A stretch of 64,000 bases of DNA, taken from Macrococcoides bohemicum. GTDB taxonomy: Bacteria; Bacillota; Bacilli; Staphylococcales; Staphylococcaceae. This document shows positions 7,406 to 41,756 of the stretch, piece by piece. The stretch spans positions 1 through 64,000 of the forward strand of contig NZ_PZJG01000006.1 of the NCBI RefSeq assembly GCF_003259675.1, given 5' to 3'. Below the pieces are notes generated by a model. It was not told the origin of the DNA. It made no database searches and saw only the letters and a list, made by a program, of their open reading frames with translations. Made by a program: the position numbers and the translations under genes. Positions within the stretch are counted from its first letter, which is position 1. Each line of letters starts with the position of its first letter.

Positions 7406-7432
7406 CCACTCTGGAGAGTGGTTAGTTTTTTT
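7404..7432 (+). terminator. tatC terminator
   Basis: AACCACTC-TGG-GAGTGGTT followed by a T run, right behind the tatC stop codon. Confidence 0.85.
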
Positions 7433-7443
7433 GATATTTCATG

Positions 7444-7742
7444 GAAGAAATTACAAACAAATGCCCACATGGAATCAGAAGTGTGCATGAACAGGAAGAA
7501 ACTTCAAACAAATGCCCACAACGAACTAGAAGTGTGCACGAACAGGAAGAAACTTCAAACAAATGCCCACATGGAATCAAAAGTGTGCACGAACAGGAAG
7601 AAACTTCAAACAAATGCCCACAACGAACTAGAAGTGTGCACGAACAGGAAGAAACTTCAAACAAATACCCACATGGAATCAGAAGTGTGCATGAACAGGA
7701 AGAAACTTCAAACAAATGCCCGCATGGAATCAGAAGTGTGCA
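7444..7742. repeat. Tandem array of six 51-bp units
   Basis: Six head-to-tail units of 51 bp, the last one truncated, start at 7444, 7495, 7546, 7597, 7648 and 7699. Each contains AACTTCAAACAAATGCCCAC and AGAAGTGTGCA. Two unit variants occur (core ATGGAATCA or ACGAACTAG), so units 1, 3, 5 and 6 differ from 2 and 4. TGCCCAC and GTGTGCA inside each unit can form an imperfect hairpin. Because 51 is divisible by three, reading frames stay open on both strands, but no RBS supports translation. It lies between the tatC terminator and the NERD gene. Confidence 0.9.
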
Positions 7743-7764
7743 TCTATACCCATTAATATCCAAC

Positions 7765-8658
7765 TCAAATTTGATATGTACCTTCTTTATCAGTACGTTT
7801 TAAATTTTTCCTGATAAAACGCTCGATTTTGTAGTTTCTCCTATCACTTCCCGCAATAAACTTCGTAAATTTACCAACTTTCACACTGCTCACTTTATGA
7901 ATTGCACAATATTCTTTAAGTGCATAGTACATCACATCATTAAAACGATAAATTTCATAACAACATGACATCTTTATCAGGTTAGAAAATTCTACGTCTT
8001 GCACAACAGCACATTTCGGACATTTCAAACCTTTAAAAAACACAGCTTCTGATATATCCAGTTCAACACTATGAATTGATTCTAATCGATGAGCTTTCAC
8101 AAGTGATTCTGCAATATCATAGTCAACTTCCATTACAGGGTGCATCTTTAATTCATGAAATGATGACTGTAATTCGTTTGCGTGTAACAAGCGCGGATGT
8201 CTGTCGTCATTTCTAAACGTCACATCATTATTTACAAATACAAAAAAACCCACTACTGCAAAGTTCACGCCGAAATGCTTCCATATATAATTCCTTAAAA
8301 AAGTTTCAGATCTGCTGATCTGTAAATCAGGATTCTCAATCTCTTTATAACCGTGATAGAACTTGCCATCTTGATAACGAGAATCCCTAGTATAGTATTT
8401 CGCGTCTAATATATATCCACTTTGATTCACGATAACGATTGTATCGAACTGTCGTTCTGTTTTACCATCTAACAATCGTAAATCCTGAATGACTAATGCA
8501 TTTCCGAAATCTACACGACTAACAATACGATCAAGTAGTTGCTCGCCGTAATAGCCTTTTAATTCTAATTCATAATCGGATAAATCGAGACTACTGCGTC
8601 CTTTGAGGTGGTGTAACTGAAGCAAAGAAGAGGAAGGTTGTCTTGTTTTGATAATCAT
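7765..8658 (-). CDS. NERD-domain (nuclease-related) protein
   Basis: 297-aa protein with a nuclease-related domain in its N-terminal half: a YGEQLL segment near residue 38, then QDLRL and ERQFDTIVI, and the DAKYYTRDS stretch that corresponds to the core Asp/Lys of this PD-(D/E)XK-like fold. The C-terminal part has a CPKCAVVQDV pair of cysteines and a basic tail. The ATG at 8658 has AGGAG 5 bases upstream; a longer frame starting at 8688 lacks an RBS. The substrate is unknown. Its 3' end touches the tandem repeat block. Confidence 0.8.
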   Translation of the reverse strand: MIIKTRQPSSSLLQLHHLKGRSSLDLSDYELELKGYYGEQLLDRIVSRVDFGNALVIQDLRLLDGKTERQFDTIVIVNQSGYILDAKYYTRDSRYQDGKFYHGYKEIENPDLQISRSETFLRNYIWKHFGVNFAVVGFFVFVNNDVTFRNDDRHPRLLHANELQSSFHELKMHPVMEVDYDIAESLVKAHRLESIHSVELDISEAVFFKGLKCPKCAVVQDVEFSNLIKMSCCYEIYRFNDVMYYALKEYCAIHKVSSVKVGKFTKFIAGSDRRNYKIERFIRKNLKRTDKEGTYQI

Positions 8659-25809: not shown

Positions 25810-25898
25810 TATAAAATTAACTGAAAATTCTAAAATAAAAGTACCCAATAAAAAATTTACATGTTATATTTACAATATAATACAAAGGAGTGGTTTTT

Positions 25899-28800
25899 AT
25901 GGATGAAAGTATTAAGCCTTACATTTTGAGTTTAGACATCGGTACCGCATCAGTCGGTTATAGTGCAATGGATAAAAACTTTAATATCCTCAAATATCAC
26001 GATAAACATGCAATCGGTGTTCTTACTTTTGAATCAGCGAGTACTGCTGCTGAGCGTCGTTTGCAAAGAGGTGCGAGAAGAAGATATAACCGTCGTGTAA
26101 AACGATTAGGATTACTACAGGAAGTATTGGCACCACTCGTTAAGAATCCGAACTTCTATAAATATGAAAACCTTTCTAAGTGGAAAAATAATAATCATGA
26201 TTTTCAAGGGAAATCGTTATCGGAAGTTTTGAGATTTCTTGGTATGGATGGGCGCAAGTATCCTACAATCTATCATTTACAATATGCACTGCTTACAGAA
26301 CAAAAAAAGTTTGCTCCTGAGCTTATATACATAGCGTTGTATCATTTAGTGAAATATCGCGGACATTTTTTGTTTGATCAGCTTGACTTAAGCAAACGTA
26401 CAGGAAATGAAGGTGTCGCTGATTTACAGGAACTAATCGAATCATTTGAGTCACTAAATGAAATGAATCTATCAATAGATTCAGCTAAACTACAAGAAAT
26501 ATTTGAAATACTGAAAGATGAAAGTTTAACTAGAAATGATCGTTCAAAACAACTGAACAAAATTCAGAAACCTTTATCAGATATGTTTAAAATGTTGCTT
26601 GGGATGAAATTCAAAGAATTTGAGCTTTTTCCTGGAATGGACAATTACGAATCCTTAAAAGAAGACAAAAAGTCATATGCATTATCTGAAGACTATGAAG
26701 CTTCGATGAGTGAGCAATTAAAACAAGAGCAACGTGAATTTATTGAACTAGGAAATAAAGTATACATGTCATTAGTGCTTGAATCAATTCTACAAGATGC
26801 ATCGTGCGTATCACACTCTAAAGTTAATGATTACAATAAGTTTAAAAATGAATTAACAACTGTTAAAGATATTATTTATAAAAAAGATGCTACAAAACAA
26901 TTGTATACAAACATATTTGTTTCTTCTAAAGAGGCGATAAGAAATTATGATGCATTACCAAGCGATGAGAATTATAAAAAATTATGTTTATTTGATCAGT
27001 ATTTAAAGCATCCAAAAACCAAATATGATGACTTGAATAAAGAATTAAAAAAACATATCGACAAGTCTCATCCATTCTATGAATTACTTGAAGAAAACAA
27101 ATTGTTAAGAGTGTTAAATACCGTTGATAATTCAAGTATTCCAATGCAAAATAATCTTTTTGAAGCAGAACGTATATTAAAGAATCAGCAAAGTTATCAT
27201 AAAGAAATTACAAATGAAATGATTGAGCAAGTTTTAAGCATCATTAGATTCAGAATTACTTATTATGTAGGACCATTAGTAAAACATTCAGAAAACCAAA
27301 AGTTTGGATGGATGACTAGAAATTCGGATGAACGTATTAAACCATGGAATTTTGATAGTATTGTAAACCGCTCTAAGAGTGCTGAAGAGTTCATACGCAA
27401 AATGACGAATAAATGTACTTACTTGATGAATGAAGATGTACTTCCGAAAAACAGTTTGATTTATCAAGAAATGGAAGTATTAAATGAATTGAATGGTGTT
27501 CAAATTAGACCTGAAAATGCACCTAAACATAAGAAATATAGACTTGAACCAAGCGTAAAACTATATATTTATAATGAAATCTTCAAGAAAAGTAAGTCTG
27601 TAACACATAAATCATTAATCGATAAAATGAAAAAATCTGAACATAAGTCATTCTTTACATCTTTCGATGATAAGCTAAGGGTTTTTGGTACTCAGGATGA
27701 AACTAAATTTGTATCAAAACTATCAACATATCAAGATATGAATCGTATCATTGGTGATGTTGAAAATAATTACGACATGATTGAAGAAATTGTTCTTTGG
27801 ATTACAATATTTGAAGACAAAAATATACTTGAAGATAAAATTAAAGAAAAATATTCAGAGTTATCTAAGAAACAGATTGAACAGTTGAAGAAGCTCAACT
27901 ATTCTGGGTGGGGTAGAATTAGTGAAAAATTATTAACACATGACTATAAAGGTTTTACTGTAATTGATCTATTACGCCGAACAGATCAAAACTTTATGGA
28001 AATTATTACGAGTAAAGATTATGGTTTCAAAGAATTCATCTCTGACGAAAATCAAATCGAACACCATCAGGTAAGATACAAAGATGTCGCAGCATTAGCT
28101 ACATCACCAGCACTTAAGAAAGGGATTTGGAATACATTAGAAATTGTGCGTGAATTAACAACAATTTTTGGTGAACCTGAATACATTGTTATGGAGTTTG
28201 CTACTGAAGATGGTGAAAAAGCGAAACGACAAAAATCAAGAAAACAGCAGTGGGATAGTAATATTAAAGTTAATAAACTGAAGTCAGTTGCTGATTATAA
28301 AAAAGTCATTGATGAGTCTTCTGATGAAAACTTTGATTTTCAGAATGATAGGTTATGGCTCTATCTATCTCAAAATGGAAAATGTATGTATACACATGAA
28401 AGCATAGATTTAGGAAGATTATTAAATGATAAATCAAATCAAGTTTATGAAATAGATCATATTTATCCACAACGATTAGTGAAGGATGACAGTATTAATA
28501 ATAAGGTACTTGTAGTAAAATCTGCAAACCAACATAAGTCTGGGGATGCAATGCCACTTGAAAAAATGTCTGAAACGAAACGTGGATATATGATTAGTTT
28601 CTGGAAACGATTAAATGATAATGGTTTAATAAGCAGTACTAAATTGGCTAGATTAATGAAACAGACATTATCAGAACTAGATAAAGAAGGGTTCATTCAA
28701 AGACAGTTAGTAGAAACGAGACAAATTTCTTCTCACGTAAGAGATTTTCTAGAAGAAGAATATTCTGATACTAAAGTTATTCCTATGAAATCAAGATTTG

Positions 28801-29924
28801 CAAGTGAATTTAGAAAACGATTTGAAATTCCGAAGATACGTGAGCTTAATGATAGTCATCATGCGATTGATGCTTATTTGAACGGTGTTGTATACCTGGC
28901 AGGTCGAGTGTTATATCCAGATGTTGACTTCTTTGATTTTAACTTTAAACGTGAAAAAGTTCGTCAAAAGTGGAAAGCAATGGGAGAAAATTTAAATGAA
29001 AATAGAAAAAAAGATGACTTCTTCTTCTTTAATAAAATCAAAAATTTAGATCTATCACAAGGTGAATTATTGACTTCTAAGATTAAGATGGACATCGATA
29101 ACTTTAAAATTAATTACGTAAGAAAAACAGGTGGTCAAGAGAGCGCATTCTATAAACAGACAGCTTATTCACCAAAATTAAATCAAGCAAAATACGATTC
29201 TAACAAAAATGATTTTGTAGTTTATAAAGAAATGAAGGTTTTAAAATCGCATGCTATTTATTACGTAGAGGTTGGTAAGAATGGTAAACCTAAAGAAAAA
29301 TATAGCGTAGTAGATGAGCTAGTTATTGAAAGCTATCAAAATCAAGGATTATCAAAAGATGAACTTGCATTGTATTTAGCAAATAGAGAAAGTAAATTTG
29401 AAGTAACAGAAGCAAAGTATTTATTTGAAATTAATAAGGGAGATATTATTTATCTTAATGAACATCCGACTTATTTCGTTTCAAGTGGAGAAGTTATCAA
29501 CGGTCGTCAATTTAGAATGTCAATTGAAGAGCAAATTAACTTAAGAGAGACTTTAAGAGGTAAGATTAATCAATCTAAAGAAGAATTAAACGTAGTTTAT
29601 CAATCTGTCGCACAAAAACTTATTGAAGACTATGCGATTATACTACCGAAAAAAGATAAAGAATCTAAAATAGAAAAAATTATGAAATACTTTGAAACTA
29701 CAGAGATGACTTTAGAAGACTTTGAAAAGTGTATAAAAGAAGTTTTTAAAGTGGCTGGTGCAAACGCAGGACGCTCAGATTATCTGGGTGGAAGAATGAG
29801 TGGTCTGTCAGATACTACTTTCTTCGGTAAAGATATCAATGCTAAAATTCAATATAAATCAATTACAGGACTTAAATCCACAAAATTAAAATCCCTTTAT
29901 AAACTCGCGGAGTCATTAAAATGA
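25899..29924 (+). CDS. cas9: CRISPR-associated endonuclease Cas9 (type II-A)
   Basis: 1341-aa RNA-guided double-strand DNA endonuclease. RuvC-I has LSLDIGTASVGYS with Asp13; the Arg-rich bridge helix is RRLQRGARRRYNRRVKRL. RuvC-II has IVMEFATEDG with Glu766, HNH has EIDHIYPQ with His854, and RuvC-III has SHHAIDAYLNG with His988 and Asp991. All nuclease residues are intact. The length is that of the long II-A group (S. pyogenes-like), not of the 1053-aa S. aureus protein. The ATG at 25899 has AAAGGAG 8 bases before it. It forms an operon with cas1-cas2-csn2 with overlapping or close junctions. Confidence 0.98.
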   Translation: MDESIKPYILSLDIGTASVGYSAMDKNFNILKYHDKHAIGVLTFESASTAAERRLQRGARRRYNRRVKRLGLLQEVLAPLVKNPNFYKYENLSKWKNNNHDFQGKSLSEVLRFLGMDGRKYPTIYHLQYALLTEQKKFAPELIYIALYHLVKYRGHFLFDQLDLSKRTGNEGVADLQELIESFESLNEMNLSIDSAKLQEIFEILKDESLTRNDRSKQLNKIQKPLSDMFKMLLGMKFKEFELFPGMDNYESLKEDKKSYALSEDYEASMSEQLKQEQREFIELGNKVYMSLVLESILQDASCVSHSKVNDYNKFKNELTTVKDIIYKKDATKQLYTNIFVSSKEAIRNYDALPSDENYKKLCLFDQYLKHPKTKYDDLNKELKKHIDKSHPFYELLEENKLLRVLNTVDNSSIPMQNNLFEAERILKNQQSYHKEITNEMIEQVLSIIRFRITYYVGPLVKHSENQKFGWMTRNSDERIKPWNFDSIVNRSKSAEEFIRKMTNKCTYLMNEDVLPKNSLIYQEMEVLNELNGVQIRPENAPKHKKYRLEPSVKLYIYNEIFKKSKSVTHKSLIDKMKKSEHKSFFTSFDDKLRVFGTQDETKFVSKLSTYQDMNRIIGDVENNYDMIEEIVLWITIFEDKNILEDKIKEKYSELSKKQIEQLKKLNYSGWGRISEKLLTHDYKGFTVIDLLRRTDQNFMEIITSKDYGFKEFISDENQIEHHQVRYKDVAALATSPALKKGIWNTLEIVRELTTIFGEPEYIVMEFATEDGEKAKRQKSRKQQWDSNIKVNKLKSVADYKKVIDESSDENFDFQNDRLWLYLSQNGKCMYTHESIDLGRLLNDKSNQVYEIDHIYPQRLVKDDSINNKVLVVKSANQHKSGDAMPLEKMSETKRGYMISFWKRLNDNGLISSTKLARLMKQTLSELDKEGFIQRQLVETRQISSHVRDFLEEEYSDTKVIPMKSRFASEFRKRFEIPKIRELNDSHHAIDAYLNGVVYLAGRVLYPDVDFFDFNFKREKVRQKWKAMGENLNENRKKDDFFFFNKIKNLDLSQGELLTSKIKMDIDNFKINYVRKTGGQESAFYKQTAYSPKLNQAKYDSNKNDFVVYKEMKVLKSHAIYYVEVGKNGKPKEKYSVVDELVIESYQNQGLSKDELALYLANRESKFEVTEAKYLFEINKGDIIYLNEHPTYFVSSGEVINGRQFRMSIEEQINLRETLRGKINQSKEELNVVYQSVAQKLIEDYAIILPKKDKESKIEKIMKYFETTEMTLEDFEKCIKEVFKVAGANAGRSDYLGGRMSGLSDTTFFGKDINAKIQYKSITGLKSTKLKSLYKLAESLK

Positions 29925-30796
29925 GTTTCAGAACAATAGTGATAACAAAAGAGTCGAAACTGTCATTGCGAATGAATCATCTTGTTGTGAAGTCAGAGAC
30001 ACATACACAAGTTCCTATTGGAGAAATATCTTGTCTAATCATTGAAAATCCAAACATTTCGTTAACAGGTCATTTAATGAATGCTTTAACAGAAAATAAA
30101 ATTATGACAATTGTTTGTGGTAAAGATCATTTACCACAAACATTTCTACATGCAGTGTACGGGCATCATCGTCAATCCAGACTTATTGAGCAACAAATGA
30201 ATTGGCATCCAGAATTTAAGGAACGCATGTGGCAATTGATTATCAAGAAAAAAATAGAATATCAAAAGCAAATTATTAAGTACTATTTCAAAACACTGGA
30301 TGTTTCAATTTTCGATGAATACATCCGTGATGTTAAGCCTGGAGACTATACAAATAGAGAAGGTCATTCAGCGAAAGTATATTTTAATATTATCTTCAGT
30401 AACGAAATTACCAGAAACACAGAACATGTGAAAAATGCAGGGTTGGATTATGGGTATCAAATTATATTAGCAATATTTGCAAGAACAATAATAAGTAAAG
30501 GTTATCTTACAGAGATTGGAATCATGCATAGAAATGAATTTAATTTATATAATCTAGCATCTGACCTAATGGAAGTAATACGACCACTTATAGATTATAC
30601 TGTGCTGGATACAATTAGAGATTCATTTGAAAAAGAAGAAAAAAGAAAAATTGCAGATGTTCTCAATAAAAAAATATGTGTAAATAATAAAATGTATTAC
30701 TTAGTGAACGCCATAGAAATATATGTTGAAAGTGTATTTAAATATTTATCCACTGGAAATGAAAAATATATTAAGTTTCCAAGTTGGAAATATTAA
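29921..30796 (+). CDS. cas1: CRISPR-associated endonuclease/integrase Cas1
   Basis: 291-aa adaptation integrase that with Cas2 inserts new spacers at the leader end. The sequence begins MSFRTIVITKESKLSLRMNH and contains the conserved IMHRNEFNLYNLASDLME segment with the catalytic His and the following Glu/Asp region. The ATG overlaps the cas9 stop (ATGA), and CGGAG lies in front. The type II-A Cas1 length is normal. Confidence 0.96.
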   Translation: MSFRTIVITKESKLSLRMNHLVVKSETHTQVPIGEISCLIIENPNISLTGHLMNALTENKIMTIVCGKDHLPQTFLHAVYGHHRQSRLIEQQMNWHPEFKERMWQLIIKKKIEYQKQIIKYYFKTLDVSIFDEYIRDVKPGDYTNREGHSAKVYFNIIFSNEITRNTEHVKNAGLDYGYQIILAIFARTIISKGYLTEIGIMHRNEFNLYNLASDLMEVIRPLIDYTVLDTIRDSFEKEEKRKIADVLNKKICVNNKMYYLVNAIEIYVESVFKYLSTGNEKYIKFPSWKY

Positions 30797-30807
30797 AGGA
30801 GATATGT

Positions 30808-31131
30808 ATGGGGGCGAAATATTTGAGGTTATTTGTAATGTTCGATTTGCCAGTTGAAACTTCTAGGGAGAGGCGTGCTTATCGTCAGTTCGTCAAATAT
30901 TTGACTAAAGAAGGTTTTGTCAGAATACAATATTCTATCTATAGTAAGCTCATCTTTAATAGAGGTACATTGATTCACCAAATGAATAAGTTAAAGCAAG
31001 AAGTACCACTTAACGGAACAGTCCAGACCTTAACAGTAACTGAGAAGCAATTTAGTGAAATGACATATTTGGTAGGAGAACCTCCGCAAGGCATGATTGG
31101 ATTACGAACAGATAGGATGATTGAGTTATGA
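30808..31131 (+). CDS. cas2: CRISPR-associated protein Cas2
   Basis: 107-aa structural partner of Cas1 in spacer integration, with the family start YLRLFVMFDLPVETSRERRAY (ferredoxin-like strand and conserved Asp) and the GFVRIQYSIYSKL segment. The ATG at 30808 follows AAAGGAG 6 bases upstream; an in-frame TTG inside cas1 is not the start. The stop overlaps the csn2 start. Confidence 0.96.
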   Translation: MGAKYLRLFVMFDLPVETSRERRAYRQFVKYLTKEGFVRIQYSIYSKLIFNRGTLIHQMNKLKQEVPLNGTVQTLTVTEKQFSEMTYLVGEPPQGMIGLRTDRMIEL

Positions 31132-31973
31132 AAATATCAAGTAATCTGTCTGCAGTAATTGATATTAAAGAAAATAAAATTAACGCAATTACTTTTGAGG
31201 ATACTTATCAATGTAATGAATTTATAAGAAATTTGCTTAACTACCTTAATGCTAAAGAAGACGGAGATGACTTATTTAGTGAGCTGATAGATGAAGATAT
31301 TGAAACAGTTAATGTAAAGTCATTTCATAGTATTATACTTAATTGTGGGACTTTAGATTTGATATCAGAGAAACAGATGAAAGATGCTATGATGAAAAGA
31401 CTTGAGCAAGATTGTCTAGGTAAAGAAGAGATAGGAAATATATATGAACGCATTGAAAAAGAAATGAGCCTTTTATCTTCTATAATGAAGATAAAAGATG
31501 ATTATTATCAAATTGAGATAGATGAAACTCAGTTGAAGTTTAAACAATTTTTAAAGCTTTTTAAAATAGATGTTCATAATGATTTTAGTCATTTAAGTGC
31601 AATACAGGCGAGGAAAGCATGTATTGATTTGATGAAGGAGGAGAAAAAAGAAAATATTCTTTTTCTGTTGTTTCCTGAATCAAATCTGGGTGTGAAAGAC
31701 GTTAAAGCTTTTATGGATTTAATTAAAAATTATGGAATGACAACGATTATGGTTACAAATCATCCGTATTTTATGATAGAAGCGGATTCTTTGTCTATGA
31801 GTAAGGATAATATGACTTTATTTGATATTAATCAGGTTAGAGACGAATTTCGATTAATGTTCCCAAACGAAGAGATAGATGAGAACATTGTGAGACAAAT
31901 AGCTATTAATGAATTTTCTCGACAATACTTTATTAAAGATGAGCGCTATATCAGATTTATTAATGAGTACTAG
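31128..31973 (+). CDS. csn2: Csn2-like type II-A adaptation protein, long variant
   Basis: 281-aa protein in the fixed Csn2 position behind cas2, overlapping it by 4 bases. Csn2 forms rings around DNA ends during spacer acquisition. The length lies between the ~220-aa S. pyogenes form and the ~350-aa S. thermophilus form, so it belongs to a less common subfamily. A KKENILFLLFPES stretch with a following helix-strand pattern (MTTIMVTNHPYFM) resembles the C-terminal half of the Csn2 P-loop-like core; no intact Walker A motif is seen. Assignment is by position and weak sequence pattern. Confidence 0.8.
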   Translation: MKISSNLSAVIDIKENKINAITFEDTYQCNEFIRNLLNYLNAKEDGDDLFSELIDEDIETVNVKSFHSIILNCGTLDLISEKQMKDAMMKRLEQDCLGKEEIGNIYERIEKEMSLLSSIMKIKDDYYQIEIDETQLKFKQFLKLFKIDVHNDFSHLSAIQARKACIDLMKEEKKENILFLLFPESNLGVKDVKAFMDLIKNYGMTTIMVTNHPYFMIEADSLSMSKDNMTLFDINQVRDEFRLMFPNEEIDENIVRQIAINEFSRQYFIKDERYIRFINEY

Positions 31974-32056
31974 TCGTGTATAATAAGTAATAACTATAAA
32001 AACTGTTTCATTATCATTACAAAGAGTAGTTTATACCTCATAACTTCGTGTTTTGA
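31974..32056 (+). promoter_or_regulatory. CRISPR leader
   Basis: The 83-base AT-rich gap between csn2 and the first repeat ends in TTTTGAG directly at the repeat. This resembles the ATTTGAG leader-anchoring sequence of S. thermophilus-type II-A arrays, which directs Cas1-Cas2 to the first repeat. The leader side is therefore at the csn2 end. Confidence 0.7.
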
Positions 32057-35000
32057 GTTTTAGAACTATGATCTTTTAGAATGAAGTGAAACTATGGCAG
32101 TTGCTAAAGTTCAAGCAGTAGGTTTTAGAACTATGATCTTTTAGAATGAAGTGAAACAAAGGTATGGCAAAGTCATTTAAAGCTTCGTTTTAGAACTATG
32201 ATCTTTTAGAATGAAGTGAAACATATCGATTGGTCCACTCGCATTATTAAAGTTTTAGAACTATGATCTTTTAGAATGAAGTGAAACGTTTTATCATCTG
32301 AGTATATTGCAATATTGTTTTAGAACTATGATCTTTTAGAATGAAGTGAAACTGATTTTGATAAGACGGTAAATATTGTTATGTTTTAGAACTATGATCT
32401 TTTAGAATGAAGTGAAACTAGCAGAAACGCAGACATCACAAGCAGCAAGTTTTAGAACTATGATCTTTTAGAATGAAGTGAAACATTGACGAGAAGGTGC
32501 CAATAAAAGAGCTGTTTTAGAACTATGATCTTTTAGAATGAAGTGAAACCACTTGGAACGCTGTAGCTTTTGAAATGGCGTTTTAGAACTATGATCTTTT
32601 AGAATGAAGTGAAACATCGTCTACCTTTCTTCGTCCAAATCATAAGTTTTAGAACTATGATCTTTTAGAATGAAGTGAAACATCATTTATGGCGATGATT
32701 TAATGATGCGCGTTTTAGAACTATGATCTTTTAGAATGAAGTGAAACAACCCTATTACTTAATTTCTTAAGTAGTAGTTTTAGAACTATGATCTTTTAGA
32801 ATGAAGTGAAACGTTCGTAAGAGTGCTTAAGAATGATGTACAGTTTTAGAACTATGATCTTTTAGAATGAAGTGAAACCAAGTGAACTAATTGAATTAAT
32901 CATCATGTGTTTTAGAACTATGATCTTTTAGAATGAAGTGAAACATGATTGATAACTAACTTAAGTAAGTCTATGTTTTAGAACTATGATCTTTTAGAAT
33001 GAAGTGAAACACAGATTTGAAACAGAGACAGGCAAACCACGTTTTAGAACTATGATCTTTTAGAATGAAGTGAAACTAAATGAAAGCACACCATTTATTA
33101 TTTGTTGTTTTAGAACTATGATCTTTTAGAATGAAGTGAAACGATTAGTAGGTAATAAGAAAGATTGGTTCCGTTTTAGAACTATGATCTTTTAGAATGA
33201 AGTGAAACGTTTACTGCATCATTTAATAAAGCACCATTGTTTTAGAACTATGATCTTTTAGAATGAAGTGAAACGTCAATGAGTGTCACGACATATGGAA
33301 GTATGTTTTAGAACTATGATCTTTTAGAATGAAGTGAAACTAAAATGTTTTGATAATACATATGTTCTCTGTTTTAGAACTATGATCTTTTAGAATGAAG
33401 TGAAACACTTTGTTGCCCATTCGCACGATTTCCTCCGTTTTAGAACTATGATCTTTTAGAATGAAGTGAAACTAAGGCTGGCGAGGGCGTTAAGTGGCTT
33501 GCGTTTTAGAACTATGATCTTTTAGAATGAAGTGAAACGAAAGAGAATGCTGGATGTCGTTGTAGTATGTTTTAGAACTATGATCTTTTAGAATGAAGTG
33601 AAACAAAGAGAAATCATAGGAACCGCTCATGTAGTTTTAGAACTATGATCTTTTAGAATGAAGTGAAACTAAAGGATTCTTCCAATTGTTTCAAGGTAAG
33701 TTTTAGAACTATGATCTTTTAGAATGAAGTGAAACATTATTTAACAAGTGACCAAGAAAAAGATTGTTTTAGAACTATGATCTTTTAGAATGAAGTGAAA
33801 CTTGTACCATTGAATGTTATAAGCATGGTTGTTTTAGAACTATGATCTTTTAGAATGAAGTGAAACTGAAGATGCACAGTTTATTGAAATATACGAGTTT
33901 TAGAACTATGATCTTTTAGAATGAAGTGAAACAGAAAGAAAACTGGAGGAAACAAATACGTAGTTTTAGAACTATGATCTTTTAGAATGAAGTGAAACTT
34001 CTGAATTAAAACCGTTTCACTAATTTTAGTTTTAGAACTATGATCTTTTAGAATGAAGTGAAACTTCAAATAATGATTCGTTTGAAAGCGTCCAGTTTTA
34101 GAACTATGATCTTTTAGAATGAAGTGAAACCTTGCTTTAGGTTCTGCCATGGCATCTGTGTTTTAGAACTATGATCTTTTAGAATGAAGTGAAACAAGAA
34201 TAGAAAGCCTACATTTAACGACTGGTTTTAGAACTATGATCTTTTAGAATGAAGTGAAACGCAATTCAGCGTGGGGAGCAGATGCGTACTGTTTTAGAAC
34301 TATGATCTTTTAGAATGAAGTGAAACTGGTGGTCAACTTGTATATGATTATTACTTGTTTTAGAACTATGATCTTTTAGAATGAAGTGAAACGTAACGTT
34401 CAATCCGTGGAATGAGCGCCATGTTTTAGAACTATGATCTTTTAGAATGAAGTGAAACATATCCGAATTCATAAATTGATGGATATTTGTTTTAGAACTA
34501 TGATCTTTTAGAATGAAGTGAAACATTAGAATTAGTTTATGATAAAGAGATGCCGTTTTAGAACTATGATCTTTTAGAATGAAGTGAAACTCCGTACTAG
34601 TTCTAAAGCTAGTACGGTTGGTTTTAGAACTATGATCTTTTAGAATGAAGTGAAACACCATCTGTAATGATGGACTCATGGGAATAGTTTTAGAACTATG
34701 ATCTTTTAGAATGAAGTGAAACAGTATTGGTCGTACAATCTACATAACAGGTGTTTTAGAACTATGATCTTTTAGAATGAAGTGAAACACATTAGATGAA
34801 CTTATGGAAAAAGCTACGGTTTTAGAACTATGATCTTTTAGAATGAAGTGAAACAATTTTAGTTGATAGTGTGAGTAGTGTTTGTTTTAGAACTATGATC
34901 TTTTAGAATGAAGTGAAACATACTGTTTACCATCTGCATATCGCATGTTGTTTTAGAACTATGATCTTTTAGAATGAAGTGAAACAACACATTTATTTCG

Positions 35001-38000
35001 GATGTCGAGCCTATGGTTTTAGAACTATGATCTTTTAGAATGAAGTGAAACTTTTTCTGTAACTGAACAGTCTATGAATATGTTTTAGAACTATGATCTT
35101 TTAGAATGAAGTGAAACACAGAGTCGTGGCGTATCTCGGGTGTAAAGTTTTAGAACTATGATCTTTTAGAATGAAGTGAAACGAGTAAGCCTTTTCCTAC
35201 CCACTCGAATAAGTTTTAGAACTATGATCTTTTAGAATGAAGTGAAACTGTAAATTTCACGGTTCTTCGTGATATTTTGTTTTAGAACTATGATCTTTTA
35301 GAATGAAGTGAAACAAAAGTCTTATCAAGTTTTATCTTCTCAATGTTTTAGAACTATGATCTTTTAGAATGAAGTGAAACAGATATGTTTGTGAACAAGG
35401 ATTACGAAGTGTTTTAGAACTATGATCTTTTAGAATGAAGTGAAACCCATATGATTTTCCCCATATCTTTTTCGGTGTTTTAGAACTATGATCTTTTAGA
35501 ATGAAGTGAAACAAGCAAGACGTAAGGAACAGGAAATTGTTGTTTTAGAACTATGATCTTTTAGAATGAAGTGAAACAGGTTCATCGCTTTATATAAGAC
35601 GTTTCAGTTTTAGAACTATGATCTTTTAGAATGAAGTGAAACGTAGCGACATGGCACAAACTTCTAAAGTTAGTTTTAGAACTATGATCTTTTAGAATGA
35701 AGTGAAACTCGTTTTCGAGATACAGAGGTTCATCATTTGTTTTAGAACTATGATCTTTTAGAATGAAGTGAAACAGGACGTGACGGTTATAGATTAATCG
35801 GAGCGTTTTAGAACTATGATCTTTTAGAATGAAGTGAAACCATACTCACTTGATATGAGTTCCATATCTCGTTTTAGAACTATGATCTTTTAGAATGAAG
35901 TGAAACCGAAATACGTATAGATCACGTGTGAATACGTTTTAGAACTATGATCTTTTAGAATGAAGTGAAACAAGTTATTATGACAAAGGGAGTGTGAGGA
36001 GGTTTTAGAACTATGATCTTTTAGAATGAAGTGAAACCGCTTGTTCTGAAATGGTTAGTACTGCGATGTTTTAGAACTATGATCTTTTAGAATGAAGTGA
36101 AACTATCATAGTGACTTGATTTACTGTTTTGACGTTTTAGAACTATGATCTTTTAGAATGAAGTGAAACAAAAACTACTAAACGCTCATAATCATATATG
36201 TTTTAGAACTATGATCTTTTAGAATGAAGTGAAACATCTTTTTGCGTGCCATCTGTAGCCGTGAAGTTTTAGAACTATGATCTTTTAGAATGAAGTGAAA
36301 CATATCGATCCAATGGATTACTTTAGTAAGTGTTTTAGAACTATGATCTTTTAGAATGAAGTGAAACAAAAGAAATGGAAATTAAAAAAGTTGGTAAGTT
36401 TTAGAACTATGATCTTTTAGAATGAAGTGAAACATAAGAAGACAATTAAATATTGGGAAGATAGTTTTAGAACTATGATCTTTTAGAATGAAGTGAAACA
36501 TATAATCAGACAAAATCTTATAACTTAATGTTTTAGAACTATGATCTTTTAGAATGAAGTGAAACTGGTCCATCAGTTGAGAATAACTTTAACTCGTTTT
36601 AGAACTATGATCTTTTAGAATGAAGTGAAACGCAGTATGGAGGTATAATCCTCCGTTTATGTTTTAGAACTATGATCTTTTAGAATGAAGTGAAACAACA
36701 ACACAGATAATACTGTTACATCTACGTTTTAGAACTATGATCTTTTAGAATGAAGTGAAACAAATGGTATTAAAAACCACTTAATCTATCCGTTTTAGAA
36801 CTATGATCTTTTAGAATGAAGTGAAACTAAAATCAGTTTTCTTTCCCATGTTTTTTGTTTTAGAACTATGATCTTTTAGAATGAAGTGAAACTACCTCCG
36901 TTTAATTTCGTTTATATTTCGTGTTTTAGAACTATGATCTTTTAGAATGAAGTGAAACTTTAGGACCAAATGTTAATAACCCTGTTTCGTTTTAGAACTA
37001 TGATCTTTTAGAATGAAGTGAAACTAGTAGTGAAGCAATTACTTTAAAATATATGTTTTAGAACTATGATCTTTTAGAATGAAGTGAAACTACAAGCTGT
37101 GTTGTTGTCTCAGTGTTTGTGTTTTAGAACTATGATCTTTTAGAATGAAGTGAAACGGTTGAGCGCTATGTAAGTGAACAGTTAGGTTTTAGAACTATGA
37201 TCTTTTAGAATGAAGTGAAACTGCTATATCTGTACTTGCGCCTTCTCCGTTGTTTTAGAACTATGATCTTTTAGAATGAAGTGAAACCGAAAAATTTAAT
37301 TTGTGGGAGGTTTAACGGTTTTAGAACTATGATCTTTTAGAATGAAGTGAAACATAACAACTGCAACAATTTGAGCAACAATGTTTTAGAACTATGATCT
37401 TTTAGAATGAAGTGAAACTGTTCCGTACTTAAATAATGAGTATCTTATGTTTTAGAACTATGATCTTTTAGAATGAAGTGAAACTTATCGAGAACCCTGC
37501 ACATGGTCGTATCTGTTTTAGAACTATGATCTTTTAGAATGAAGTGAAACTAAAATGTTAGGAGAGTTCGCAGAGTTGATGTTTTAGAACTATGATCTTT
37601 TAGAATGAAGTGAAACGGCGGTATTACTCAAAATTACGATAGCTGGGTTTTAGAACTATGATCTTTTAGAATGAAGTGAAACGGCAGCGGACCAGGCCGG
37701 CGCAACATACGTGTTTTAGAACTATGATCTTTTAGAATGAAGTGAAACTTCCTTTTATCTTATTCTTCGCATTCTCAACGTTTTAGAACTATGATCTTTT
37801 AGAATGAAGTGAAACAAATATTGCAACTGAATATTTAGACTTACGTTTTAGAACTATGATCTTTTAGAATGAAGTGAAACTAAAAAGAACGCATTGACAG
37901 CTTACTTTGTGTTTTAGAACTATGATCTTTTAGAATGTATGTTTTAGAACTATGATCTTTTAGAATGAAGTGAAACTTAATCTACTGCTTTTCTACGTCT

Positions 38001-38087
38001 GCGTTTGTTTTAGAACTATGATCTTTTAGAATGAAGTGAAACCTATCGCTTTAAGAGTAGGATTGCACGAGTGTTTTAGAACTATGA
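32057..38087 (+). CRISPR. Type II-A CRISPR array, about 91 spacers
   Basis: A 36-bp repeat begins GTTTTAGAACTATGATC and ends GAATGAAGTGAAAC. It is repeated with spacers of 29-31 bases (mostly 30). I counted 91 full spacers by hand. Repeats are nearly invariant over 6 kb. Near the distal end one repeat is cut after 27 bases (37911-37937) and followed by only 3 bases before the next repeat. The last unit is a 15-base partial repeat at 38073. Repeats match the tracrRNA anti-repeat, so array and cas genes belong together. Several spacers contain gene-start-like sequences, as expected for phage or plasmid targets. Confidence 0.99.
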
Positions 38088-38120: not shown

Positions 38121-38222
38121 GTTTTAGTACTCTGCGAAATTTAGTATAAGTGAGATTTTGATGCGTATTATAAATCTTTAAAATGCGTTATAGTACTCTG
38201 TGAAATATGGATTCTGACCAAC
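38121..38222 (+). CRISPR. Relic of a second, different CRISPR array (two degenerate repeats)
   Basis: GTTTTAGTACTCTGCGAAAT at 38121 and GTTATAGTACTCTGTGAAAT at 38187 are exactly 66 bases apart, the 36+30 period of type II-A arrays. Their first 14 bases (GTTTTAGTACTCTG) equal the start of the repeat used by the S. aureus Cas9 type, not that of the array here. The first copy continues with a TTTAG-TATAAGTGAGAT part also resembling that repeat; the second decays after 22 bases. No matching cas genes are present in the window. Confidence 0.6.
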
Positions 38223-38269: not shown

Positions 38270-38389
38270 TTGATTTCGGATAGTGAACACTTTAACTATA
38301 CGCTCGAAAACGTTAATAAGAAATACAAGATGAACGTTAAAGAGTTAGGTAAGGATAAAGAGAAGTTAGAATTGTTTCTAGAAAAATAA
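38270..38389 (+). pseudogene. C-terminal coding remnant, unknown
   Basis: A 39-codon open stretch ends at TAA 38387. It encodes a charged, helix-like sequence (NVNKKYKMNVKELGKDKEKL) that looks like the end of a real protein, but no plausible start or RBS exists apart from a TTG. A stop lies a few codons upstream. It fits gene debris between the CRISPR arrays and the DUF262 genes. No family is recognised. Confidence 0.3.
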
Positions 38390-38407: not shown

Positions 38408-38434
38408 AACCGATTCCTAATCGAATCGTTTTTT
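38408..38434 (+). terminator. GATTC/GAATC hairpin with T run
   Basis: CCGATTCCTAATCGAATCG followed by six T. It is nearly the same sequence as the terminator at 41730-41748 on the other side of the DUF262 pair. Confidence 0.65.
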
Positions 38435-38526: not shown

Positions 38527-39876
38527 ATGACACTTATAACTAATGACTTAAAGATACTATCGCTTAAAGATTTGATGTTGAGTTCAAATGGAGAAGGATC
38601 ATTAACCCTTAAAATTCCTTCCTATCAAAGGCCTTATCGCTGGAGTTCTAAATCTGCTAATCAATTATTTATGGATATCTATGAAGCATTTAATAATAAT
38701 ATATCAGAATATCGCTTAGGGAGTGTGATTCTTCACAAAGATAACGATTTCTATAATATTGTAGATGGTCAGCAGAGGCTTACCACATTATCTATCTTAT
38801 TATTTGTTATAAAAAGTGAAAACAGTGATTATGAAGACAGATTATCTTTACTTAATGAAAAGTATGACGACTTGTCTCATGCAGCGATCGTTCGTAACTT
38901 TGATATCTTGAACAAACGTGTTGGAGAATTAAGTCTGGATGAAATAAAGAGATTAGAGCAGTATCTGTTAGAACGATGTACAATCGTTCAGATTGTTACA
39001 GACAACGTTCAGGAAGCATTTCAGTTCTTTGATTCTCAGAATTCTAGAGGAAAGGCACTTGCGCCGCATGATTTACTCAAGTCTTATCATTTACGAGAAA
39101 TGAAACATAATGATGAACAAGCGACTATGGATTTAATTCAGCAGTGGGAGAATATCGATCAAGCGAGACTTTCACTGATATTTGAGTGGTATCTCTATCC
39201 AATCCATCAGTGGCAAAGAAATAAAGATGGTATTGGTTATTCTTCAAAGAATATAGATGTATTTAAAGGGATTAACGCTGACAGTACGTTTAACTATGCA
39301 ATGTATCATAAAGCAAGTCACCTTTATGTTGAACAGTTTAATAGAAGTGGCAACAATGAGCTCTTCGCTTCTACTCCTATAACGCAGTTTCAATTAACAG
39401 AACCGATTATAGCAGGTAGGCGTTTTTTTGAATATATATTGTATTACGAGAAATTGCTAAAGAAAGTAGCATATAGAATCAATAATGCGAACCGTGAGCA
39501 TCCAGAAGTGCTGGGGGACGAAAGTGTGCGAGGCGATTGGCTTACGAAAAGGTTGTATGAAGCTTTAGTATTAATGTGTATTGATCGTTTTGGAGAGGAA
39601 GCATTCACTCCAAGGATTGAAAATATATTATATACATGGAGTTATTCGATTAGACTGCATATGAAAAGAGTGAGCAAACTAACGATTAATAAGTATGCGC
39701 AAGGCAATCATGAAATTAATCCAGGATTGAATTTATTTGAGCGTATTAAAGAAATGAGACATCCAAATGAACTTATGGAAATACTGTTTAAACAACCTGA
39801 ACACCATAATAAATATAAAATAATGAAAGAAGAAATTTTCAAAATTAATCATTGGAGCTTAAATAATGACGAATAA
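38527..39876 (+). CDS. DUF262 protein (ParB-like NTPase), partner A
   Basis: 449-aa protein with an N-terminal DUF262 domain: PSYQRPYRW (near residue 31), GSVIL and IVDGQQRLTTL (near residue 78), the conserved nucleotide-binding pattern, and QFFDSQNSRGKALAPHDLLKSY around residue 165. The C-terminal half is helical and has no HNH motif. DUF262 proteins include GmrS of type IV restriction systems, BrxU and SspE. AAGAGG precedes the ATG. The end overlaps the next gene by 11 bases, so the two are coupled. Location directly behind a CRISPR array suggests a defence role; this is inference. Confidence 0.88.
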   Translation: MTLITNDLKILSLKDLMLSSNGEGSLTLKIPSYQRPYRWSSKSANQLFMDIYEAFNNNISEYRLGSVILHKDNDFYNIVDGQQRLTTLSILLFVIKSENSDYEDRLSLLNEKYDDLSHAAIVRNFDILNKRVGELSLDEIKRLEQYLLERCTIVQIVTDNVQEAFQFFDSQNSRGKALAPHDLLKSYHLREMKHNDEQATMDLIQQWENIDQARLSLIFEWYLYPIHQWQRNKDGIGYSSKNIDVFKGINADSTFNYAMYHKASHLYVEQFNRSGNNELFASTPITQFQLTEPIIAGRRFFEYILYYEKLLKKVAYRINNANREHPEVLGDESVRGDWLTKRLYEALVLMCIDRFGEEAFTPRIENILYTWSYSIRLHMKRVSKLTINKYAQGNHEINPGLNLFERIKEMRHPNELMEILFKQPEHHNKYKIMKEEIFKINHWSLNNDE

Positions 39877-41740
39877 TAAACAGAGTATATCAGGATATAC
39901 AAATAAAAATGTATTTACCAAATCAGCATCCGAAATTTTTAAGAACATGCGTTTCTTGATCCCCATCTATCAACGAAATTATGCATGGGGTGAGACTCAA
40001 ATTGTACAACTCATTGAAGATATAGACAGTGCAGTGACACTGGATACGGATACAGGTGAGTACTTCTTAGGAAATTTAATCTTAAATAAAAGAGATACGT
40101 TATCTGACGAAGACTATCTATATACGAATGAAGTCATTGATGGGCAGCAGAGGCTCACGACATTGTATTTACTATGTATTTATTTAGGCATCGACTTTGA
40201 TAAAGAAGCATTGAGGTTTGAAGCGAGAGTACAGTCAAATCAGACGTTGGATTTAATTAATGAAGCTAATGTTAATAATTATGGCAGTATACTATCTGAT
40301 GAAATCTTAAAAGGTTATGAGATTATTAAAAATTATTTCCTGGTACATAAAATAGTTAAAGAAGACTTTAAAACTAAGTTAACTAAAGTGAAGTTAGTTG
40401 TTATCTATGTCCCACAAGATATTGATTTGAACCATTACTTTGAAATTATGAATACACGTGGTGAGCAGCTTGAACTACATGAAATTGCTAAGGCAAGAAT
40501 CTTAGAGCAAATGACATCTAGTAATGATCAAACGTTAGCTGCAACAATCTGGGATGCATGTTCCAATATGAATCGATATGTACAGATGAATTTTAGCAGC
40601 GATTTTAGGGGAGAAATATTTAATGATAACTGGGATAATCTTAAAGAAAATCTAAAGTGCTTCGATGATTTATCAACGAATAATAATAGTGGAAATCACA
40701 ACGAGCAAATGACACTAATAGATAGAATTAAGGGTAAAGGTGATACAAAAGGAGATACGAGCAACACTGTATTCGAAAATGATGGTGAACGATTCGATTC
40801 TATTATTTCATTTCCTAATTTTTTGCTCCAGGTTAACGCTGCCTTAAGTAAAGAGGATAATGAAACACCGGGTTTAGATGATAAACAGCTATTACAAAGC
40901 TTAGCGTGGGTCTGGCAGAAAAATGATGATGAAAGCGATGAAGACAGAGGAAAGCAATCTAAAGACTTTCTATTTCAACTATTAAAGACAAGAATCATAT
41001 TCGATAGAATAATTATCAAAAGAGAATACAAAGGTAAAGCTCTAAATGAAGGTAGATGGTCATTACAGAAAATGAAAAGATATGTCGAGAGAGAAAATTA
41101 TACAGCTGATTATGTTGATACTTTAAAAGGGTCAGAGAATAAACAATTAAAAGTGTTACAATCAGCGCTTAGAGTGACCTATACATCACCGAAAGCAATG
41201 CGCTGGATTACGCTAGTGCTTAAAAGTATCCTGAATGAGAATAAAGAGGAATCAGATGTTATTCAGATACTTGAAGATTACTGTAGAGAAAGCGTAAGAA
41301 AATCTGATTATAAGAACAAACGTGGTTTTCAGATAGAACATATCGTATTTAATTATCTGGATTATCTATTGTACAGAGATGGGTATGAAAATGAACAAAA
41401 GCAAGTGATTACTAAGTTATCAAACTGGGAGTTCCAATTTAGAAACTCAATTGAACATTTCTATCCACAACATCCTTTGAATGGAGATATATGGGATGAA
41501 CACGATGAATTAAATAGCTTCGGTAATCTCGCACTTATATCAGTAAGTGGCAATTCAATGTTCTCCAATCGTATACCGGAAGAGAAAGCTAAAGTTGAGC
41601 ATATCATTAACCAAAGCTTGAAACTGGAGATTATGGCACATATAACGAAAAAATCAGGGTGGAGTAAAGAAAAGGTTAAATGTCATTGTGATGAAATGAT
41701 AACGATAATAGATAATGATATTAGAAAAGCCGATTCATAA
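39866..41740 (+). CDS. DUF262-DUF1524 HNH nuclease, partner B
   Basis: 624-aa protein. The N-terminal DUF262 has IPIYQRNYAWGETQ and EVIDGQQRLTTLY and FEIMNTRGEQLELHEIAKA. The C-terminal DUF1524 domain carries the HNH pattern SIEHFYPQHP (near residue 530), then NSFGNLALIS and a late NRIPEEKAKV. All expected residues are present. In GmrSD-type enzymes the DUF262 NTPase controls a DUF1524 nuclease that cuts modified phage DNA. Here the partner A has DUF262 only and this gene has both, so the system is GmrSD-like but not the single-fusion form. A terminator follows. Confidence 0.9.
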   Translation: MTNNKQSISGYTNKNVFTKSASEIFKNMRFLIPIYQRNYAWGETQIVQLIEDIDSAVTLDTDTGEYFLGNLILNKRDTLSDEDYLYTNEVIDGQQRLTTLYLLCIYLGIDFDKEALRFEARVQSNQTLDLINEANVNNYGSILSDEILKGYEIIKNYFLVHKIVKEDFKTKLTKVKLVVIYVPQDIDLNHYFEIMNTRGEQLELHEIAKARILEQMTSSNDQTLAATIWDACSNMNRYVQMNFSSDFRGEIFNDNWDNLKENLKCFDDLSTNNNSGNHNEQMTLIDRIKGKGDTKGDTSNTVFENDGERFDSIISFPNFLLQVNAALSKEDNETPGLDDKQLLQSLAWVWQKNDDESDEDRGKQSKDFLFQLLKTRIIFDRIIIKREYKGKALNEGRWSLQKMKRYVERENYTADYVDTLKGSENKQLKVLQSALRVTYTSPKAMRWITLVLKSILNENKEESDVIQILEDYCRESVRKSDYKNKRGFQIEHIVFNYLDYLLYRDGYENEQKQVITKLSNWEFQFRNSIEHFYPQHPLNGDIWDEHDELNSFGNLALISVSGNSMFSNRIPEEKAKVEHIINQSLKLEIMAHITKKSGWSKEKVKCHCDEMITIIDNDIRKADS

Positions 41741-41756
41741 TCGAATCGGCTTTAAT
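41725..41756 (+). terminator. Terminator of the DUF262 operon
   Basis: AAAGCCGATTC-ATAATC-GAATCGGCTTT followed by AATTATT. The core is shared with 38408-38426 upstream of the pair. Confidence 0.8.

What the first reader, a model, noticed from the sequence alone, without database searches (positions are those of the whole stretch)
38527..41756. Coupled DUF262 + DUF262-DUF1524 pair behind a CRISPR array: candidate two-protein defence module
Two genes overlapping by 11 bp encode a DUF262 NTPase-like protein without nuclease and a second DUF262 protein fused to a DUF1524 HNH domain. Both keep the DGQQRLTT motif, and the HNH residues (EHFYPQHP, GNLALIS) are intact. GmrSD-type IV restriction uses DUF262 and DUF1524, but usually as one NTPase and one nuclease or as a fusion; here there are two different DUF262 domains, suggesting a heteromeric NTPase controlling one nuclease. 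It sits next to an active-looking CRISPR locus and gene relics, as expected of a defence hotspot.
Basis: partly seen in the sequence, partly recalled or inferred. Interest (0 to 1): 0.75.

Follow-up and report, generated by a model that had tools for sequence, protein, structure and literature searches.

The report
Two-protein anti-phage DNA-cutting system
Two neighbouring bacterial genes encode a sensor protein and a sensor-plus-DNA-cutter that most likely work together to destroy phage DNA carrying chemical modifications; it looks like a new relative of a defence system already shown by others in cholera bacteria and E. coli.

Summary
Window 38527-39876 (A, 449 aa) is a DUF262 protein without nuclease; 39866-41740 (B, 624 aa) is DUF262 plus DUF1524/HNH. 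They overlap by 11 bp, downstream of a type II CRISPR locus. The pairing is not chance: of 79 genome loci found with A alone, 77 have a B homologue next door in the same order. A and B diverge in step (Mantel r 0.956, 0 of 2000 permutations), and the DGQQR motif of both and the HNH residues of B are conserved. The architecture is published and tested twice: TgvAB of Vibrio cholerae (PMC11411939) and GmrS1/GmrSD2 of E. coli ECOR17 (PMC12373910). In both, neither gene protects alone and the HNH site is needed; in TgvAB both DUF262 motifs are needed too. The window pair matches E. coli pairs of this architecture subunit by subunit over nearly full length. Best reading: a two-subunit, modification-dependent type IV restriction system of the TgvAB / two-gene GmrSD kind, a new member in a branch rich in Bacillota. 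The modification sensed is unknown; A-B contact and phage defence were not tested.

The parts
38527..39876 (+). Gene A: DUF262 + DUF7834 protein, 449 aa, no nuclease domain (TgvA / GmrS1-like subunit)
38578..39090 (+). DUF262 (GmrSD_N, ParB/Srx-like) domain of A, residues 18-188; DGQQR at 38764-38778
   Evidence: Pfam; alignment; fold on SspE DUF262
39127..39813 (+). DUF7834 helical part of A, residues 201-429
   Evidence: Pfam; model
39866..41740 (+). Gene B: DUF262-DUF1524 (HNH) protein, 624 aa (TgvB / GmrSD2-like subunit); starts 11 bp before the end of A
39929..40501 (+). DUF262 domain of B, residues 22-212; DGQQR at 40139-40153
   Evidence: Pfam; alignment
41315..41704 (+). DUF1524 / HNH nuclease domain of B, residues 484-613; E530 H531 at 41453-41458, N554 at 41525-41527, N563 at 41552-41554
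   Evidence: Pfam; these columns identical in 79 of 79 aligned pairs
38411..38428 (+). Hairpin CGATTCCTAATCGAATCG followed by T run, upstream of A (terminator-like)
41731..41748 (+). Second copy of the hairpin, overlapping the end of B
25890..38042 (+). Neighbouring type II CRISPR-Cas locus (Cas9, Cas1, Cas2, presumed Csn2, 91 repeats); neighbour, not part of the pair

Best explanation
A and B form a two-subunit, modification-dependent (type IV) restriction system of the TgvAB / two-gene GmrSD kind. Inferred mechanism: the DUF262 domains of A and B bind nucleotide in their DGQQR pockets and together sense modified bases in invading phage DNA; nucleotide binding or hydrolysis then licenses B's DUF1524 HNH nuclease, which cuts or nicks that DNA, while host DNA is spared because it lacks the mark. 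Shown here: architecture, intact motifs, near-obligate pairing, co-divergence, folds. Shown by others in homologues: both proteins and the HNH site are needed for phage defence, and in TgvAB both DUF262 motifs. Inferred: A-B contact, the modification sensed, activity in this host.
For: Pair in order A-B in 77 of 79 loci found with A alone. Mantel r 0.956 between A and B distances over 79 pairs, 0 of 2000 permutations. DGQQR columns kept in A (Q82 in 78 of 79, the other four in 79 of 79) and in B (79 of 79); B E530, H531, N554, N563 in 79 of 79. Near full-length subunit-by-subunit homology to E. coli pairs lying in hsdM-hsdS-A-B-hsdR operons: A 30% (E 3e-64, 2e-62), B 32% and 30% (E 4e-85, 2e-78), cross A-B only E 4e-10 to 1e-14; one of them has E582 H583, the very positions of the ECOR17 active site. 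Folds: A residues 1-175 on SspE DUF262, Z 15.2, rmsd 2.4, 169 aligned; B on SspE, Z 15.7, rmsd 8.5, 492 aligned. Experiments on TgvAB and ECOR17. Own genome has no match to the C5-cytosine methylase family PF00145 (control rings in 10 of 14), so a 5mC-type reader would spare self.
Against: No phage or biochemical test here. The nearest tested systems share only 30-35% identity, so the mark may differ. The host genome's lack of C5-methylase is permissive only. No complex was modelled. V. cholerae TgvAB itself was not aligned; E. coli pairs of the same operon architecture stood in for it. B model has low-confidence stretches (1-13, 275-282, 293-304).
Confidence: 0.8

Rival explanations
1. B is a complete single-chain GmrSD/BrxU-like enzyme and A is an accessory, for example a decoy or shield against phage inhibitors of type IV enzymes, not a sensor subunit.
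For: B has both domains of a single-chain GmrSD and lies on full-length SspE, DndI and BrxU. The TgvAB authors name overcoming a phage inhibitor as one possible role of TgvA.
Against: B is next to A in 77 of 79 loci and co-diverges with it; A keeps its own DGQQR pocket; TgvA DGQQR changes abolish defence and neither TgvAB nor ECOR17 genes protect singly.
Confidence: 0.1
2. The pair is an abortive-infection nuclease: once triggered it damages host and phage DNA alike and kills the cell, instead of cutting phage DNA selectively.
For: Joint over-expression of the ECOR17 pair was grossly toxic. Single-chain GmrSD-like PFLU4242 is linked to plasmid cost and DNA damage (one passage of PMC8544851).
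Against: TgvAB cultures mostly kept growing under phage attack and the authors conclude direct action. Toxicity was seen under over-expression.
Confidence: 0.07
3. The pair works as an accessory of the neighbouring CRISPR-Cas locus.
For: It starts about 480 bases after the last exact repeat on the same strand, and both are absent from the corresponding place in two sister species.
Against: A terminator-like hairpin lies between. The plasmid and E. coli relatives that I opened are annotated without cas genes nearby; TgvAB works when moved alone into E. coli. The flanks of the 79 genome loci were not searched for cas genes.
Confidence: 0.02

Closest known systems
TgvAB (VC1767-VC1766), Vibrio cholerae; PMC11411939 (abstract and passages seen)
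   Same: Two adjacent genes; DUF262 in both, DUF1524 only in the second; DGQQR in both; His-Me nuclease residues in the second, with H571-N602 31 apart there and H531-N563 32 apart here.
   Different: TgvAB lies inside a type I restriction operon; no hsdR, hsdM or hsdS homologue was found in the 64-kb window with V. aerogenes queries. The paper itself reports 1,341 tgvAB hits against 79 for the five-gene cluster. V. cholerae sequences were not aligned here.
GmrS1/GmrSD2 (GmrSD_ECOR17, CLS_003/CLS_004), E. coli; PMC12373910 (passages and section 10 seen)
   Same: Same two-gene architecture; an E. coli pair with E582 H583 (L139) matches window A at 30% (E 2e-62) and B at 30% (E 2e-78).
   Different: Only about 30-33% identity; another branch by nearest neighbours. 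Known to act on T-even phages and to be blocked by T4 Ip3; nothing of the kind known for the window pair.
Single-chain GmrSD, BrxU, SspE, DndI (PMC4619093, PMC10952713, passages)
   Same: DUF262-helical-DUF1524 fold of B; A resembles the part without the nuclease.
   Different: One protein does both jobs. Single-chain GmrSD-like proteins of the same genus score 67-96 bits with the A profile and 56-89 bits or nothing with the B profile, against at least 320 (A) and 371 (full-length B) for members of pairs.

Membership tests
TgvAB / two-gene GmrSD systems | Two adjacent genes, nuclease-less DUF262 gene first, DUF262-DUF1524 gene second | tested here: met
   same order in 77 of 79 relatives
TgvAB / two-gene GmrSD systems | DGQQR pocket intact in both proteins | tested here: met
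TgvAB / two-gene GmrSD systems | His-Me finger (H...N...N) residues intact in the second protein | tested here: met
   B H531, N554, N563
TgvAB / two-gene GmrSD systems | Each subunit homologous to its own counterpart over most of its length | tested here: met
   against two E. coli pairs in hsdM-hsdS-A-B-hsdR operons; V. cholerae and ECOR17 sequences themselves not aligned
TgvAB / two-gene GmrSD systems | Both genes and the nuclease needed for defence against modified phage | not testable with these tools
   needs plaque assays
TgvAB in the narrow sense of its name (type I-embedded) | Lies inside a type I restriction operon | tested here: not met
   no hsdR/M/S match in the window at E 1e-8 with V. 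aerogenes queries; the paper does not treat this as defining (1,341 pairs, 79 five-gene clusters)
Single-chain GmrSD / BrxU | One protein sufficient, no second DUF262 partner | tested here: not met
   partner A present and conserved; sufficiency of B not testable here
SspE / DndI phosphorothioate-sensing systems | Host makes phosphorothioate DNA | tested here: inconclusive
   DndC model TIGR03183: 0 matches in the own genome, but no control genome passed the cut-off either; SspABCD not searched

The most novel reading that the evidence does not exclude
The branch to which the window pair belongs (17 of 26 rows Bacillota) may read a different mark from the sugar-modified hydroxymethylcytosine of T-even phages, for example hydroxymethyluracil or another hypermodified base of Gram-positive phages (recalled, no call). 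The two DUF262 subunits would form a paired reader whose specificity has been retuned between branches.
Probability: 0.25. Interest if true: 0.5.

Novelty: new member of a known kind. Interest (0 to 1): 0.22.

Why it matters
In what I read, two-protein type IV restriction had been tested with systems of V. cholerae and E. coli only. The pair here, with relatives in Streptococcus, Lactococcus, Enterococcus, Bacillaceae and Clostridium, carries it to another branch. The near-strict pairing and the conserved NTP motif in the nuclease-less subunit make the papers' open question, what TgvA/GmrS1 does, testable by comparing branches. The finding itself is ordinary in kind.

Tried and rejected
Viral contigs: no relative of A. 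The Pfam model DUF7834 (PF25202) matched 3 of 398 phylum genomes, 2 above its cut-off, so it marks only part of the family; a profile of A was used instead. Array against phage genomes: no match by megablast, which needs a 28-base exact word, so spacers could be missed. Promoter before A: sites in the region not above shuffles (27 against mean 25.1, sd 5.2). A second CRISPR repeat type: 0 of 9 genus genomes with the pattern tried, and that pattern did not match the window's own degenerate copy either, so it tests little. NCBIfam: no match for A or B.

Neighbours of relatives in the window's branch: 102 of the 103 flanking proteins picked were scanned (one left out by me); scattered families, e.g. 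ResIII 3 members, Recombinase 3, PADLOC mREase_IV 3. The 66 more distant ORFs picked as a control were not scanned, so no enrichment is claimed. hsdM homologues were found in 13 of 87 loci with one query. 145 ORFs of the variable region in sister species were listed but not scanned.

Eight of the nine rows of the A profile came with a B next door (the window, seven plasmid pairs; B of the ninth, G023, was found later). The two loci without a B: L092 (A runs into the contig end) and L068 (A itself truncated). Five of the 77 B are short: L087 and L090 at contig ends, L063, L094, L095. The tree used 77 of 87 loci; the Mantel test these 77 plus two E. coli pairs; ten loci with truncated or missing partners were left out. 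By regular expression, DGQQR-like was seen in 84 of 87 A (misses L048, L068, L084) and EH..PQ in 76 of 79 long B (misses L103, L105, L119). A whole-structure fit of both models to solved enzymes has large rmsd; only the DUF262 fit of A is tight.

Full report
What is there. Two genes on the + strand, 38527-39876 (A, 449 aa) and 39866-41740 (B, 624 aa), overlap by 11 bp. Pfam finds DUF262/GmrSD_N in both, DUF7834 in the rest of A, and DUF1524/GmrSD_C at the end of B; A has no nuclease domain. PADLOC's nearest models, HEC-06, Orf5 and SspE, match both proteins in pieces; NCBIfam has no match. Upstream lie Cas9, Cas1, Cas2 and a 281-aa protein in the place of Csn2 (inferred; no Pfam match), then 91 exact repeats. 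Downstream is a GNAT acetyltransferase on the other strand.

Is the pairing real? Genomes were searched with a profile of A only (best 80 of 540 relatives kept, 79 distinct loci). In 77 of 79 a B homologue follows on the same strand: gap -107 to +14 bp in 76, and +418 in L065, whose A is truncated (mechanical ORF starts). The two exceptions are a contig end (L092) and a locus with a truncated A (L068). Most rows of the A profile came from known pairs, a mild bias, but B played no part in the search. The loci come from Bacillota, Bacteroidota, Pseudomonadota, Spirochaetota, Fibrobacterota, an archaeon and others. On plasmids A matches 1035 and B 1016 of 72,556 records, mostly Klebsiella. In the seven plasmid regions opened A and a B-type gene are neighbours, though in Picosynechococcus B is in pieces with an IS1 transposase inside. 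A and B distances over 79 pairs correlate at r 0.956 (0 of 2000 permutations; largest permuted value 0.157).

Residues. Over those 79 pairs the DGQQR columns are D79 G79 Q78 Q79 R79 in A and 79 throughout in B; B E530, H531, N554 and N563 are in 79 of 79, N568 in 73. The motif of the nuclease-less subunit is thus as conserved as that of B, as expected of a working sensor or NTPase.

Structure. AlphaFold models: A mean pLDDT 89.5, pTM 0.74; B 85.2, 0.68. A's first 175 residues lie on SspE's DUF262 at Z 15.2, rmsd 2.4, 169 aligned. B lies on SspE (Z 15.7, rmsd 8.5, 492 aligned), DndI (Z 14.0, rmsd 14.2, 461) and BrxU (Z 8.1, rmsd 10.6, 374). The large rmsd values probably reflect domain orientation (inference).

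What it is. The same architecture has been tested twice. TgvAB: both proteins carry DUF262, TgvB also DUF1524; neither gene protects alone; DGQQR substitutions in either, or H571A or N602A in TgvB, abolish defence; 1,341 tgvAB hits in 41,142 genomes (PMC11411939, passages). GmrS1/GmrSD2 of E. coli ECOR17: both genes needed, E582A H583A inactive, joint over-expression toxic; 3 two-gene groups among 15 enterobacterial GmrSD groups (PMC12373910, passages and section 10). The E. coli pairs L138 and L139 lie in hsdM-hsdS-A-B-hsdR operons, and L139 B has E582 and H583. Window A and B match them subunit for subunit: A 30% and 30% (E 3e-64, 2e-62), B 32% and 30% (E 4e-85, 2e-78); cross A-B matches reach only E 4e-10 to 1e-14. 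Filing the pair with two-gene GmrSD/TgvAB is therefore a tested homology to that architecture; the V. cholerae and ECOR17 proteins themselves were not aligned. In a quick tree of 77 B proteins the window falls in a starred set of 26 rows, 17 of them Bacillota, while the Vibrio pairs beside hsdRMS (L115, L021) fall in another starred set of 23.

Mechanism. Shown here: pairing, motifs, folds. From homologues: both subunits and the HNH are needed. Inferred: the DUF262 domains sense a base modification, and nucleotide binding or hydrolysis licenses B's nuclease. The own genome (2.4 Mb, completeness 100 by the tool) has no match to the C5-cytosine methylase family PF00145 (control rings in 10 of 14 genomes), so self DNA would lack that mark; other enzymes were not searched, and this is permissive only. 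DndC also gave no match, but its control is weak.

Place in the genome. Of 9 genus genomes searched with A only the window's has the pair; the other matches, one more in the own genome included, are single DUF262 proteins with 67-96 bits to the A profile and 56-89 bits or none to the B profile, against at least 320 and 371 for members of pairs. In G004 and G008 the GNAT flank lies about 1.4 kb from the homologue of the 22623-23768 gene, with neither CRISPR nor pair between; in G003 the homologues of that gene and of the 24005 ATPase gene follow each other. So CRISPR locus and pair sit in 16-18 kb that these sister species lack at that place; I read it as defence DNA gained or lost. One 18-nt hairpin brackets the pair at 38411 and 41731; exact copies occur nowhere else in the genome, and two more with 2 mismatches (in the window 2 matches against 0.21 expected). 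Whether it marks a cassette exchange or two like terminators is open.

Literature searched: TgvAB with GmrSD (3 papers), DUF262 with DUF1524 (19 papers), DUF7834 (none), TgvAB (4 papers), GmrSD/Macrococcus/Staphylococcus/two-gene (none of the 20 listed of 811 holds GmrSD). I saw no report on a Bacillota pair in these; most subscription papers are not held. The host was not identified by any search; from its proteins I guess a staphylococcal relative, perhaps Macrococcus.

Verdict: real, well explained, a new member of a published kind with an unknown target modification.

Noticed in passing
38411-38428 and 41731-41748: The same hairpin (18 nt, one variable base) brackets the pair; exact copies occur only here in the whole genome. 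Possible cassette boundary or two like terminators.
   Followed up: partly
L140:4006-4269 (E. coli K-12 yfjM), beside abpA-abpB: K-12 yfjM (87 aa) looks like the surviving C-terminal end of a B-type nuclease: 95.4% identical to the last 87 residues of the Citrobacter freundii B, which also lies beside abpA and a DEAD/DEAH helicase. blastn matched 388 of 5426 E. coli genomes, 362 records at 95-99%.
   Followed up: partly
38121-38140 and 38187-38206: Two degenerate 66-nt-spaced repeats (GTTTTAGTACTCTG-like) right after the main array; from recall they resemble the repeat type of S. aureus-like Cas9 loci, perhaps a relic of a second array.
   Followed up: partly
38290-38388: A short open stretch ending in a stop codon before the upstream hairpin, perhaps the 3' end of a lost gene.
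   Followed up: no
L024 and other Klebsiella plasmid records: 871 plasmid records hold an A homologue and 869 a B homologue at 80% coverage or more, most records being Klebsiella; in the K. pneumoniae record opened they are adjacent.
   Followed up: partly
G000 contig C24:25115-25777 (L013, L014): The same genome holds a second, single-chain DUF262 protein (557 aa ORF) unrelated to the pair in detail.
   Followed up: no
7418-7803: Short tandem repeats open in three frames (LQTNAHMESEVC-like peptide) between two gene clusters.
   Followed up: no
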